Below, in pieces: positions 18,927 through 40,807 of a stretch of 64,000 bases of DNA (position 1 is its first letter; the number at the start of each line of letters is the position of its first letter). Location of the stretch: NCBI RefSeq assembly GCF_030068615.1, contig NZ_JASJOC010000004.1, positions 310,001-374,000 of the forward strand, given 5' to 3'. Below the pieces are notes generated by a model. That model did no database searches and was not told the DNA's origin. It saw nothing but the letters and a program-made list of their open reading frames with translations. The translations under genes and the position numbers were made by a program. The DNA comes from Halostagnicola sp. A-GB9-2. GTDB lineage: Archaea; Halobacteriota; Halobacteria; Halobacteriales; Natrialbaceae.

Positions 18927-18973
18927 GAGTGCTACTCCGCTAACTGTCGTTCGACAGCAGACGACAGAGAACA

Positions 18974-19060
18974 CGGAAGGGGTGGGATTCGAACGCCACG
19001 AGGCCTGAGGGCCTCCGCGGGCCAATGGCCCACGGTGCTCTTCCGCTGAGCGACCCTTCC
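18974..19060 (-). tRNA. class-II tRNA-like gene, isotype unclear
   Basis: Minus-strand cloverleaf of 87 bases: a perfect acceptor stem GGAAGGG/CCCTTCC, a D arm with stem GCTC/GAGC and loop AGCGGAA, and a long variable arm with stem GAGGCC/GGCCTC. The T loop is the canonical TTCGAAT. Two things are wrong. The anticodon arm can pair 9 bp (CCGTGGGCC/GGCCCGCGG, one G-U) and leaves no normal 7-base loop with T33. The T stem has a bulged C (GTGGCG against CCCAC). It may be a decayed tRNA, an unusually spliced one, or a tRNA-like RNA. Confidence 0.6.
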
Positions 19061-19231
19061 ACGTTCAGGTTCGAAGGGAGATTTCGTATTTGTAATCGAG
19101 TCCCTACCGTTCGGTAGGCGGCGGTTTCGGCATCTCTGTGGGCAGTGGTGTTCGACCGATACCCTGTCCCAAGACTCACTGACGGCGACGGTTCGGTGCT
19201 TTTAGGATCGAGCCCCTCCGTGAACCGAACG

Positions 19232-25875: not shown

Positions 25876-25898
25876 GTGCGGTCGCTTCGCGACCGCAC
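25876..25898. repeat. 10-bp perfect hairpin
   Basis: GTGCGGTCGC, loop TTC, GCGACCGCAC. Sits at the edge of the transposase relic; may be an IS end structure or a terminator for the GTG-start gene's neighbourhood. Confidence 0.6.
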
Positions 25899-25937
25899 TC
25901 GGCAAAACGTTGATGAAAAGCACGTCGTCACCCCCTC

Positions 25938-25958
25938 AGCCGCGCCGTTGGCGCGGCT
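25938..25958. repeat. 9-bp perfect hairpin
   Basis: AGCCGCGCC, loop GTT, GGCGCGGCT, 40 bases from the previous hairpin. Same interpretation: structured end of a decayed mobile element. Confidence 0.55.
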
Positions 25959-26029
25959 TCGAGGGCTCCTTGGCCCGCTCGCTCACTGCGTTCGGTCGCG
26001 GGTGCAAGCGGTAACACCTCCGCCTGTAC

Positions 26030-26270
26030 TGATCGTTGGAGGGCTCGGTCGAGATTGTGGACGATACACGCAAGGACGATTCACGAAACTGCTTCCACCA
26101 TCGTTGTGAACGGACCAATCCCGTTCTCGCGGGCCATCGCCCGAATCTGCTGATCGTTGTGCCCCTTGTCTCCAAGCAAAACTCCGATTTCACTAACAGC
26201 TGGACGTTCTCTCCGGTTCCGAGGCCACCGTCCGTACACGAATTCTGACCGGAACAAAGACAGTGTACGT
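26030..26270 (-). pseudogene. eroded IS5-type transposase C-terminal fragment
   Basis: The minus strand encodes VLLGDKGHNDQQIRAMARENGI, the DKGYD-type block of haloarchaeal IS5-family (DDE) transposases. After a frame change comes KQFRE, and after one missing base IVLACIVHNLDRAL, the usual ending of such enzymes. At least two frameshifts and loss of the N-terminal half mean it is dead. No inverted-repeat ends or target duplication could be matched. Confidence 0.65.
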
Positions 26271-38168: not shown

Positions 38169-38271
38169 ACGCCGTTTGGCAGACTATTGGTATATAAACT
38201 CACGTCTTGCTCAGCGTGAGCGGATAGTCTGTTCGCGTTCCGTTGTCTCCGTCTGCTCGAGCGGTCAACTA

Positions 38272-38304
38272 CCCACCCTAAGCGCCATTGGCGCTTAGGG
38301 TGGG
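38272..38304. mobile_element. solo hairpin like an IS200/IS605-IS1341 end
   Basis: A 16-bp perfect stem (38272-38287 with 38289-38304) and a one-base centre, preceded by TCAACTA and followed by GGCTTGTC. Haloarchaeal IS1341/TnpB elements often carry ends of this design, but no tnpA/tnpB gene is next to it. It could also be a bidirectional terminator. The following 140 bases (38305-38444) show no gene. Confidence 0.45.
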
Positions 38305-38444
38305 GCTTGTCCATGAACTCGGCCTCGAACCCTCCGGGTGGGCGTTGAAATGAGGAGATTACTCCAACGAGATCAGCATCTTCAGAACTCGAGAATCCCG
38401 TGAGACAACAAGCTGGTTGCTCACGAGTTTAAAATTCGAAAAAG

Positions 38445-38466
38445 CGCCCGAGGCGGGATTTGAACC
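38445..38466 (-). repeat. 22-base copy of the tRNA-Asp 3' end
   Basis: Exact copy of the last 22 bases of the tRNA-Asp gene (discriminator, acceptor 3' strand and T arm part), 159 bases from the full gene at 38604. It diverges exactly at the T-stem. About 70 bases on, GGGTTCAACTCCC faces it in the opposite orientation, a second T-arm-like piece. Confidence 0.8.
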
Positions 38467-38553
38467 GAAGGAAGACGATCCTGCTCGGCTCGAGGAGCCT
38501 GCGCGGGGCTGCGACTTCCAGGGTTCAACTCCCTTATGCCGTCCGCTCATGAA

Positions 38554-38581
38554 GACGAGCACACGCTACGCGGTGCTCGTC
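38554..38581. terminator. hairpin 3' of tRNA-Asp copy 1
   Basis: GACGAGCAC and GTGCTCGTC pair perfectly, with three more inner pairs and one bulged A. Lies 23 bases beyond the tRNA 3' end; may end or process the transcript. Repeated at 39357-39384 and 40160-40187. Confidence 0.5.
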
Positions 38582-38603
38582 GAAATTGTTCGCGGAAGAA
38601 AGA

Positions 38604-38676
38604 CGCCCGAGGCGGGATTTGAACCCGCGTCACAACCGTGACAGGGTTGTATGATGGGCCACTACACCACCCGGGC
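38604..38676 (-). tRNA. tRNA-Asp(GTC), copy 1
   Basis: 73 bases including discriminator G. The acceptor is GCCCGGG/CCTCGGGC-type (with a G-U/T pair), the anticodon stem ACAAC/GTTGT encloses the GTC loop, and the T arm has TTCAAAT. Reads aspartate codons GAC/GAU. An AT-rich TTAATACC-type box lies about 30 bases upstream (minus strand), so it looks transcribable. Identical to copies 2 and 3. Confidence 0.95.
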
Positions 38677-39244
38677 ACCTGACAATCATTCCTTTCCCGG
38701 TGATGGTATTAAGGCTTTCCAATCGAGGGCCGCGTGGTAGTGCGAAACGGGGACGTCGAGGCAATTCTCGAGCGTTCGAACTTGGCTTTCCGTTTGCTCC
38801 GCTTTGGCTCTCCTATTCCGGAGAAGTTTGACGTCGTAGCTACCAGTCCTTAAGAGGTGTGCCCCTCCACTACGAGCGTAACCGGGATCGCTACTTTTGG
38901 AGGTGGCCGTCGATGATGTTGGTGCGGATCGAACCCGCGCGTTCGGACTTGTATTGTTGTTTGCGGTCGGAATGCAACTTTGGATCACTACCTGGATCGG
39001 GGTTATGAACTACAGTTTCTCACCGCTCTGCTAACGATGGGACTCGCCATACTGCATTGTAGCTGGATAGTTGATGATCTCAGTTCTCGTTTGCCACAGC
39101 TGTTGTTCGCTCGAGAAGTAGAATCAGGTACGGCTCGAGGTGGAATTTGGACCCAGTAGAGCCGTTCCGGGCGGTGCGACTACTTGTATCCAAATCCCTT
39201 GTTAGGTTTTCGAGAACAAGCGACTCGCTTCGGTCGTCGTATTA
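38677..39244. other. spacer with scattered tRNA-arm-like fragments
   Basis: No protein gene. It carries several T-arm-like pieces: GGATCGAACCCGCG (near 38926), GGAATTTGGACCCA (near 39141) and ATCCAAATCCC (near 39188). These look like eroded tRNA genes. The same sequence recurs at 39480-40047. Confidence 0.5.
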
Positions 39245-39255
39245 GTTCTCGAAAA
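39207..39255. repeat. 11-bp inverted repeat before the tRNA fragment
   Basis: TTTTCGAGAAC (39207-39217) and GTTCTCGAAAA (39245-39255) flank 27 bases and end two bases before the second tRNA-Asp 3'-end fragment. Recurs 803 bases later at 40010-40058. Confidence 0.65.
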
Positions 39256-39257
39256 AG

Positions 39258-39278
39258 CGCCCGAGGCGGGATTTGAAC
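39258..39278 (-). repeat. 21-base copy of the tRNA-Asp 3' end
   Basis: Second copy of the tRNA 3' end, 149 bases from full copy 2. GGGATTTGAACTA (39268-39280) faces TAGTTCAAATCCC (39319-39331) as a perfect 13-bp inverted repeat, so two T-arm pieces lie head to head. Confidence 0.8.
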
Positions 39279-39406
39279 TACGGTCGAACGACCTCGCTTC
39301 GCTCGGTTGCGTGCTCTTTAGTTCAAATCCCTTATGCCGTCGTTTCCGCTCACGAAGACGAGCACACGCTACGCGGTGCTCGTCGAAATTGTTCGCGGAA
39401 GAAAGA

Positions 39407-39479
39407 CGCCCGAGGCGGGATTTGAACCCGCGTCACAACCGTGACAGGGTTGTATGATGGGCCACTACACCACCCGGGC
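39407..39479 (-). tRNA. tRNA-Asp(GTC), copy 2
   Basis: Same 73-base sequence as copy 1 and the same upstream promoter-like region. Confidence 0.95.
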
Positions 39480-40060
39480 ACCTGACAATCATTCCTTTCC
39501 CGGTGATGGTATTAAGGCTTTCCAATCGAGGGCCGCGTGGTAGTGCGAAACGGGGACGTCGAGGCAATTCTCGAGCGTTCGAACTTGGCTTTCCGTTTGC
39601 TCCGCTTTGGCTCTCCTATTCCGGAGAAGTTTGACGTCGTAGCTACCAGTCCTTAAGAGGTGTGCCCCTCCACTACGAGCGTAACCGGGATCGCTACTTT
39701 TGGAGGTGGCCGTCGATGATGTTGGTGCGGATCGAACCCGCGCGTTCGGACTTGTATTGTTGTTTGCGGTCGGAATGCAACTTTGGATCACTACCTGGAT
39801 CGGGGTTATGAACTACAGTTTCTCACCGCTCTGCTAACGATGGGACTCGCCATACTGCATTGTAGCTGGATAGTTGATGATCTCAGTTCTCGTTTGCCAC
39901 AGCTGTTGTTCGCTCGAGAAGTAGAATCAGGTACGGCTCGAGGTGGAATTTGGACCCAGTAGAGCCGTTCCGGGCGGTGCGACTACTTGTATCCAAATCC
40001 CTTGTTAGGTTTTCGAGAACAAGCGACTCGCTTCGGTCGTCGTATTAGTTCTCGAAAAAG

Positions 40061-40081
40061 CGCCCGAGGCGGGATTTGAAC
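40061..40081 (-). repeat. 21-base copy of the tRNA-Asp 3' end
   Basis: Third copy of the tRNA 3' end, again followed by the 13-bp inverted T-arm repeat (40071-40083 with 40122-40134). Confidence 0.8.
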
Positions 40082-40209
40082 TACGGTCGAACGACCTCGC
40101 TTCGCTCGGTTGCGTGCTCTTTAGTTCAAATCCCTTATGCCGTCGTTTCCGCTCACGAAGACGAGCACACGCTACGCGGTGCTCGTCGAAATTGTTCGCG
40201 GAAGAAAGA

Positions 40210-40282
40210 CGCCCGAGGCGGGATTTGAACCCGCGTCACAACCGTGACAGGGTTGTATGATGGGCCACTACACCACCCGGGC
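40210..40282 (-). tRNA. tRNA-Asp(GTC), copy 3
   Basis: Third identical gene. Only its first ~25 upstream bases match copies 1 and 2, then the sequence changes (CACTCTTAAGG instead of TGGTATTAAGG). This is therefore probably the ancestral promoter context and the edge of the duplication. Confidence 0.95.
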
Positions 40283-40579
40283 ACCTGACAACCATTCCTT
40301 TCCCGGTGACACTCTTAAGGATTCTTACTCGGTTGCTGTATGGTAGTCGATCTCGAGGAGGGTCGTTTCTCTAAGAAAAATCAACGAAACAACAGTTCCC
40401 AAAAGGGATTTAACTGATAACGGGGTATTTTGGAGTGTGAACGGCTACTCCGGTCAGGTTTGGCCGGCCGGATAGCGCTACGCTTGCGTCCGACTTAGAA
40501 ACTCTTAACTGCCTGCCGCCGATACGTCACTGTAGTATCTCGTGACAGCAGCTTCTCTCCCCATAGCCCAGCACAACCC

Positions 40580-40807
40580 ATGGTAGACGTAAGCCAACAC
40601 GAACTCGTTCCAGAGCACACTATCCTCGAGGACGATGTCCTCGATGAAGTACTCGACGAGTACGACATCGACCGTACAGACCTGCCGAAAATCAAACGCA
40701 ACGACCCCGCACTGCCCGACGACGCAGAGATCGGGGACGTAATCAAAATCGTTCGGGATTCACGAACGACTGATCAGGCGGTAATTTACCGACTCGTGGT
40801 GGAATAA
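40580..40807 (+). CDS. rpoH: RNA polymerase subunit H
   Basis: A 75-residue Rpb5-like subunit ([40 protein letters not shown]). Binds the jaw of the polymerase. First gene of the large polymerase operon; its TAA is immediately followed by the ATG of rpoB''. The 270 bases upstream hold no gene; a GATTTAACTG patch near 40408 may be part of the promoter. Confidence 0.98.

What the first reader, a model, noticed from the sequence alone, without database searches (positions are those of the whole stretch)
38551..40305. tRNA-Asp locus in a three-copy tandem array with an exact 803-bp period
The full tRNA-Asp genes start at 38604, 39407 and 40210, exactly 803 bases apart, and the spacers, hairpins and tRNA fragments keep the same offset. 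Two units appear identical. Apparent identity implies a very recent expansion or continuing gene conversion. It could raise tRNA-Asp dose, useful in a proteome rich in aspartate, or be an unstable intermediate.
Basis: partly seen in the sequence, partly recalled or inferred. Interest (0 to 1): 0.72.

Follow-up and report, generated by a model that had tools for sequence, protein, structure and literature searches.

The report
Haloarchaeal tRNA-tail hairpin repeats; duplicated tRNA-Asp
A salt-loving archaeon carries three tRNA-Asp genes because a block was recently duplicated, and the odd hairpins and tRNA scraps between them belong to an apparently undescribed family of DNA hairpin repeats behind many tRNA genes in this order of archaea, each ending in a copy of its own tRNA's tail.

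Summary
Three tRNA-Asp(GTC) genes lie on the minus strand, exactly 803 bp apart; 938 consecutive bases are identical at that offset. There are two full units plus a 155-bp partial third. Copy number is unremarkable: two clustered tRNA-Asp genes upstream of rpoH is the family norm, and 9 of 64 sampled loci have three or more. Promoter types show the array arose by unequal crossing-over between the two ancestral copies.

The spacers' "hairpins and tRNA fragments" are the real find. [quoted passage not shown] In this genome 16 of 40 tRNA genes have a trailing copy of their own 3' end (0.3 expected on permutation); two other families show it too. The H2 signature occurs in 339 of 392 Halobacteriales genomes, 4 of 164 outside the order. 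The hairpins are tRNA-specific. Their stems show no significant G-U excess over A-C, unlike real tRNA stems (47 vs 0), so they look like DNA palindromes rather than selected RNA. Rfam and my literature search hold no match. Mechanism of spread and function are inferred.

The parts
38551..40309 (-). tandem array: two identical 803-bp units plus a 155-bp partial third
   Evidence: 938-nt perfect identity at offset 803 plus 17 nt
38604..38676 (-). tRNA-Asp(GTC), distal copy 1
   Evidence: Rfam RF00005 60.1 bits, ARAGORN
39407..39479 (-). tRNA-Asp(GTC), duplicate of the distal copy
   Evidence: same upstream 60 nt as copy 1
40210..40282 (-). tRNA-Asp(GTC), rpoH-proximal copy
   Evidence: different promoter type
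38445..38465 (-). copy of the 3'-terminal 21 nt of tRNA-Asp (end of trailer unit 1)
   Evidence: exact 21-mer
39258..39278 (-). copy of the 3'-terminal 21 nt of tRNA-Asp (end of trailer unit 2)
   Evidence: exact 21-mer
40061..40081 (-). copy of the 3'-terminal 21 nt of tRNA-Asp (end of trailer unit 3)
   Evidence: exact 21-mer
38542..38597 (-). hairpin H1 directly behind tRNA copy 1
   Evidence: read from sequence; unit fold z = -4.6
39343..39400 (-). hairpin H1 behind tRNA copy 2
   Evidence: fold z = -3.8 for H1 alone
40146..40203 (-). hairpin H1 behind the rpoH-proximal copy
   Evidence: identical to the H1 of copy 2
38455..38533 (-). hairpin H2 of unit 1 (different core from units 2 and 3)
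39268..39331 (-). hairpin H2 of unit 2: anti-T-loop arm, core, T-loop arm
   Evidence: pattern hit, z = -3.7
40071..40134 (-). hairpin H2 of unit 3
   Evidence: pattern hit
39142..39255 (-). second, degenerate trailer unit: H1-like palindrome 39207-39255 and eroded H2 39142-39198
   Evidence: inverted repeats read from sequence
39945..40058 (-). duplicate of that degenerate unit
   Evidence: +803 copy
38705..38720 (-). distal-type promoter motif GGAAAGCCTTAATACC
   Evidence: shared with distal copies of two congeners
39508..39523 (-). duplicate of the distal-type promoter motif
40310..40324 (-). rpoH-proximal-type promoter motif (GAATCCTTAAGAGTG)
   Evidence: shared with proximal copies of two congeners
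40580..40807 (+). divergent rpoH, followed by RNA polymerase B and A subunit genes; syntenic anchor
   Evidence: start sequence found at a similar distance in most loci

Best explanation
There are two layers. (1) The 803-bp array is a recent product of unequal crossing-over. The ancestor had the usual pair of tRNA-Asp genes (distal and rpoH-proximal, each with its own promoter); misaligned recombination through the shared tRNA plus H1 (about 155 bp) gave distal-spacer-distal-spacer-proximal. (2) What lies in the spacers are tRNA-trailer palindromic repeats. A unit sits behind a tRNA gene and consists of a palindrome H1, a short linker and a hairpin H2, and ends with a direct copy of that tRNA's 3' end. 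H2 looks like the T-arm of the duplicated 3' end with a palindromic core inserted at the T-loop, so its outer stem pairs the T-loop with its complement. My inference is that these are small non-autonomous DNA palindromes that grow and swap at hairpin tips, using the tRNA 3' end as recombination or insertion target. The tRNA stays intact because its 3' end is duplicated. Units then multiply in tandem and are exchanged between tRNA loci. Shown: architecture, tRNA specificity, taxonomic spread, core swapping, lack of a significant sense-RNA signature. Inferred: the mobilising mechanism and the absence of a cell function.
For: Array: perfect 938-nt identity; copies 1 and 2 share the distal promoter type, copy 3 has the proximal type, as in two-copy congeners. 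Trailer units: 69 units behind tRNA-Asp in family genomes, up to three in tandem at about 157-bp period. Own-3'-end copies behind 16/40 tRNAs in this genome against 0.3 permuted (maximum 3 in 2000); 9/29 and 9/27 in two other families against about 0.6; upstream 0, 0 and 3. H2 pattern in 339/392 Halobacteriales genomes with 0 in the reversed-pattern control; 4/164 outside the order. In this genome 13 of 15 H2 sites lie in tRNA trailers (against the tRNA list). All 8 elements behind tRNAs with a non-TTCAAAT loop carry the matching complement (two through a G-U pair); T-stem pairing 3.45/5 against 2.85 +/- 0.13 permuted, 0 of 5000. Stem mismatches: G-T 94 against A-C 112; tRNA stems 47 against 0; no significant excess in a wider set. 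Cores 80-94% alike shared between different tRNAs in fixed orientation. Congeners have swapped, absent or nested cores at the same tRNA.
Against: No transposase, integrase or transposition event has been tied to the units. Fixed orientation relative to the tRNA is not expected of a freely inserting palindrome. H1 shows a slight, non-significant G-U excess (145 against 114, p = 0.09). Covariation and order-wide retention could also mean a function. The unit count rests on one draft assembly.
Confidence: 0.58

Rival explanations
1. The units act as RNA: H1 and H2 in the pre-tRNA trailer help termination or 3'-end maturation, or release a tRNA-like small RNA, as proposed for the E. coli tyrT repeats.
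For: Position directly behind the tRNA with U-rich stretches; strong folding (z -3.7 to -6.7); tRNA-specific pairing; wide conservation.
Against: No significant G-U over A-C excess in stems, against 47:0 in tRNA stems. Units are absent or changed at the same tRNA in congeners. Many tRNAs lack them.
Confidence: 0.2
2. The fragments are att-site scars or decoys: 3'-end copies left by, or kept against, integrases that target tRNA 3' ends.
For: Same tRNA segment as in known haloarchaeal tRNA integrations, for example a 22-nt duplication in Haloquadratum (PMC3119063).
Against: Units are 130-170 bp with a conserved two-hairpin architecture and cores shared between tRNAs; no integrase recognised near the locus by reading the ORFs; scars would not carry a matching anti-arm.
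Confidence: 0.1
3. The 803-bp duplication is an assembly artefact and the cell has one spacer and two tRNA-Asp genes, like its relatives.
For: Draft genome of 38 contigs; units 100% identical; two copies is the norm.
Against: Short-read assembly tends to collapse, not invent, exact tandem repeats (general knowledge); other family loci carry three or four copies with different periods.
Confidence: 0.12
4. Selection for tRNA-Asp dosage, because the acidic halophile proteome uses much aspartate, drove and keeps the third copy.
For: Each copy has its own promoter-like motif; multiple tRNA-Asp genes are common in the family.
Against: 12 of 64 sampled loci have a single gene and most have two, so three is not needed; identity points to recency rather than selection.
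Confidence: 0.12

Closest known systems
E. coli tyrT trailer repeats (rtT RNA family)
   Same: Tandem repeats behind a tRNA gene, each containing the 3'-terminal part of that tRNA (tyrT details from my own knowledge; rtT summarised in PMC4986893).
   Different: Unrelated sequence (no Rfam rtT match); archaeal; behind many different tRNAs with tRNA-specific hairpins; no RNA product shown.
PATE and SMR palindromic mobile repeats of Haloquadratum (PMC3119063)
   Same: Short non-coding palindromic elements of haloarchaea; SMR-A elements insert into palindromes of other elements, like the nested cores seen here.
   Different: Not described as linked to tRNA genes; no tRNA 3'-end duplication; PATEs carry IS605-type ends.
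tRNA-integrated proviruses and integrative elements (attL/attR)
   Same: Duplicate the tRNA 3' end and leave the tRNA intact.
   Different: Kilobase elements with integrase genes; here 130-170 bp without genes, present behind a large share of all tRNAs.
Casposons
   Same: Can insert at tRNA 3' ends with target duplication (known from literature).
   Different: Large Cas1-encoding transposons; the units here hold no gene, and no anti-T-loop hairpin is known for casposons.

Membership tests
rtT / tyrT repeats | repeat unit behind a tRNA gene containing the tRNA's own 3' end | tested here: met
rtT / tyrT repeats | sequence/structure match to the Rfam rtT model | tested here: not met
   no hit at E<=1 in the window locus or at gathering score in 8 further loci
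rtT / tyrT repeats | stable RNA released from the tRNA transcript | not testable with these tools
   no transcriptome data; strand test argues against a selected sense RNA
PATE/SMR/MITE-type mobile palindromes | copies dispersed over many unrelated sites | tested here: not met
   13 of 15 H2 sites in this genome are in tRNA trailers; only the short tip motif is dispersed
PATE/SMR/MITE-type mobile palindromes | presence/absence at orthologous sites in close relatives | tested here: met
   congeners differ in presence, core type and nested insertions at the same tRNA (by inspection); exact empty-site borders not resolved
PATE/SMR/MITE-type mobile palindromes | related autonomous transposase | not tested
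   no transposase was searched for
integrase attachment scars | integrase gene or remnant near the fragment | tested here: inconclusive
   none recognised by reading ORFs at 34-44 kb; no profile search was run
tRNA gene array by unequal crossing-over | junctions inside a segment shared by the two parental copies, promoter types sorted accordingly | tested here: met

The most novel reading that the evidence does not exclude
Halobacteriales carry a previously undescribed class of genetic element: palindromic modules that target tRNA genes by copying the host tRNA's own 3' end and building a hairpin complementary to that tRNA's T-loop, so that one family adapts its ends to each tRNA. This would be either a new mobilisation mechanism acting on tRNA T-arms or a clade-wide tRNA-trailer system.
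Probability: 0.4. Interest if true: 0.85.

Novelty: new variant of a known kind. Interest (0 to 1): 0.64.

Why it matters
tRNA 3' ends are the classic landing sites of mobile DNA, yet a repeat class that copies the 3' end of each host tRNA and is present in most genomes of a well-studied archaeal order appears not to have been described. If confirmed it gives a tractable system for how short palindromes spread without genes of their own, explains frequent tRNA copy-number change at such loci, and warns that tRNA fragments near haloarchaeal tRNAs are not automatically provirus scars.

Tried and rejected
Asp-specific debris or a single integration scar: rejected because the same architecture occurs behind many tRNAs and across the order. 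A known Rfam RNA: no match. A selected sense RNA: disfavoured by the G-U against A-C test with a tRNA positive control. Carriage on plasmids or phages: distant blastn with the unit gave only one 66-bp plasmid match, inside the tRNA, and short phage matches within the tRNA part of the query, several at annotated tRNA genes. Naming the organism with an exact spacer 24-mer: no hit. The ARAGORN tRNA-Asn(att) call at 18973 is not supported by the Rfam search. Raw hit counts were not used as gene counts, because two genomes showed more hits than full genes at the locus.

Full report
OBSERVATION. The window is a stretch of a 4.68-Mb haloarchaeal draft genome (38 contigs; own position G000:C33:310001-374000). 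Three tRNA-Asp(GTC) genes lie at 38604-38676, 39407-39479 and 40210-40282 on the minus strand, divergent from rpoH at 40580. At offset 803 the sequence is identical over 938 consecutive bases (38551-39488) and over 17 more after one mismatch. The array is thus two full units and a 155-nt third that holds the tRNA and its immediate flanks. The unit occurs nowhere else in the genome. The claim is confirmed; only the strand and the partial nature of unit 3 need adding.

HOW THE ARRAY AROSE. In the family, tRNA-Asp genes upstream of rpoH are usually paired: of 64 loci read in full, 12 have one gene, 43 two and 9 three or more (the loci were chosen from those listed). In two congeners (G001, G002) the distal and rpoH-proximal copies have recognisably different promoters. 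In the window, copies at 38604 and 39407 carry the distal type and the copy at 40210 the proximal type, except for the first 25 nt upstream of the tRNA, which are shared apart from one base. This is what unequal crossing-over between the distal and the proximal copy of a two-gene ancestor gives. Zero substitutions in 938 nt make it recent. That the count is correct in the cell rests on the assembly and was not testable here.

WHAT IS IN THE SPACERS. Reading in the tRNA sense, each tRNA-Asp is followed by a unit of 149-159 nt: a palindrome H1 directly behind the gene, a linker, and a hairpin H2 that runs straight into a perfect copy of the last 21 nt of tRNA-Asp. H2 pairs GGGATTTGAA with TTCAAATCCC, that is, the T-loop and T-stem strand of the copied tRNA end with their complement, around a core. 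Folding is far stronger than in shuffles (z -3.7 to -6.7). Across family genomes 69 such units were found behind tRNA-Asp, up to three in tandem, for example a 157-bp period in L084. H1 and H2 cores come in several interchangeable versions.

NOT ONLY tRNA-Asp. The first hints were spacer matches at tRNA-Ser, -Arg and -His genes of congeners. A survey of all tRNA loci of this genome shows copies of the tRNA's own 3' end, mostly 71-155 nt downstream of many tRNAs, and none upstream. With a stricter score (at least 10 of 13 nt after the T-loop) 16 of 40 tRNAs qualify, against a mean of 0.3 and maximum of 3 when tRNA labels are permuted; in genomes of two other families 9 of 29 and 9 of 27 qualify against about 0.6 (29 and 27 are the tRNAs among the 30 best-scoring loci of each genome). 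The three upstream matches in one of these are probably due to tandem tRNA genes. The H2 signature GATTTGAA-N25-55-GTTCAAATC is present in 339 of 392 Halobacteriales genomes, with zero hits of the reversed pattern in every genome, and in only 4 of 164 genomes of the phylum outside the order. In the own genome 13 of 15 sites of a slightly wider pattern lie behind tRNAs, one inside a tRNA and one elsewhere.

tRNA SPECIFICITY. In 31 analysed elements the anti-arm fits the tRNA it stands behind. All eight behind a tRNA whose loop is not TTCAAAT carry the corresponding complement, two through a G-U pair, and the T-stem extension pairs better with its own tRNA (3.45 of 5) than with permuted ones (2.85 +/- 0.13, 0 of 5000 as high). 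The cores, by contrast, are shared between different tRNAs within and between genomes at 80-94% identity, always in the same orientation relative to the tRNA. So the ends follow the host tRNA while the centres move.

RNA OR DNA. If the hairpins were kept as RNA on the tRNA strand, G-U pairs should be tolerated and A-C should not. With a scoring that treats both alike, in-helix G-T and A-C occur 57:57 in H2 and 37:55 in H1. The positive control, acceptor and T stems of tRNAs of three genomes, gives 47:0. A second set gives 14:29 for H2 cores and 145:114 for H1 (p = 0.17 and 0.09). The palindromes therefore look maintained or formed at the DNA level; a weak RNA role of H1 is not excluded.

TURNOVER. 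Between congeners the same tRNA can have a unit, none that I recognise, or one with another core: tRNA-Val(tac) of G001 and G002 keeps a nearly identical H1 but has different cores, tRNA-Ser(gga) of G001 has an extra hairpin nested in the core loop, and several tRNAs of G001 lack H2 (by inspection). The tip motif CGAACGnnGTGAGCG occurs 13 times in the genome, about a third of them in tRNA trailers, so the smallest hairpins are dispersed even though the full units are tRNA-bound.

MECHANISM. Shown: architecture, tRNA specificity, distribution, core exchange, absence of a significant sense-RNA signature, and a duplication at tRNA-Asp whose junctions and promoter types fit unequal crossing-over. 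Inferred: that these are small non-autonomous palindromes which grow or insert at hairpin tips, among them the T-arm of a duplicated tRNA 3' end, and spread by recombination between tRNA loci; that they have no or little function for the cell; and that their homology promotes tRNA copy-number change as seen in the window. I give this reading 0.58 overall; the array mechanism alone I would put near 0.85.

COMPARISON WITH THE KNOWN. The nearest relative in architecture is the tyrT repeat region of E. coli (rtT RNA), where units behind a tRNA gene contain the tRNA's 3' part; rtT is summarised in PMC4986893, the repeat details are from my own knowledge, and the primary paper was not held. There is no sequence match in Rfam 15. 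Haloquadratum has small mobile palindromic repeats (PATE, SMR) of unexplained mobilisation, some inserting into palindromes of others (PMC3119063), but not tRNA-linked as described. tRNA 3' duplications in haloarchaea have been described for proviruses. Nine literature searches in an open-access library found no description of the present units; subscription papers are not covered, so novelty is provisional.

VERDICT. The array itself is an ordinary recent tandem duplication. The repeats it contains are the surprising part: order-wide, tRNA-specific, apparently undescribed, and open to simple tests.

Noticed in passing
window 25880-26090, minus strand: Another hairpin-rich stretch with the tip motif CGAACGCAGTGAGCG and two further GC-rich palindromes, in a region without a predicted tRNA.
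   Followed up: partly
window 18973-19061: ARAGORN calls tRNA-Asn with anticodon ATT; not supported by the Rfam tRNA model genome search, probably a false positive.
   Followed up: partly
window 38922-38945 and 39725-39748: TGCGGATCGAACCCGCGCG looks like an eroded T-arm of a further tRNA-like remnant in each spacer.
   Followed up: no
window 38270-38310: Near-perfect palindrome CCACCCTAAGCGCCAATGGCGCTTAGGGTGG between the array and the next gene, possibly a terminator or another palindromic repeat.
   Followed up: no
L033, L050, L055 (G082, G063, G053): Four tRNA-Asp genes arranged as two close pairs 77-90 bp apart; G101 (L059) has three at about 257 bp: independent tandem amplifications of tRNA-Asp in the family.
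   Followed up: partly
L044, L054, L082 (G079, G083, G016): The two tRNA-Asp genes are 2.7-2.9 kb apart instead of 0.3-1.3 kb, suggesting an insertion between them.
   Followed up: no
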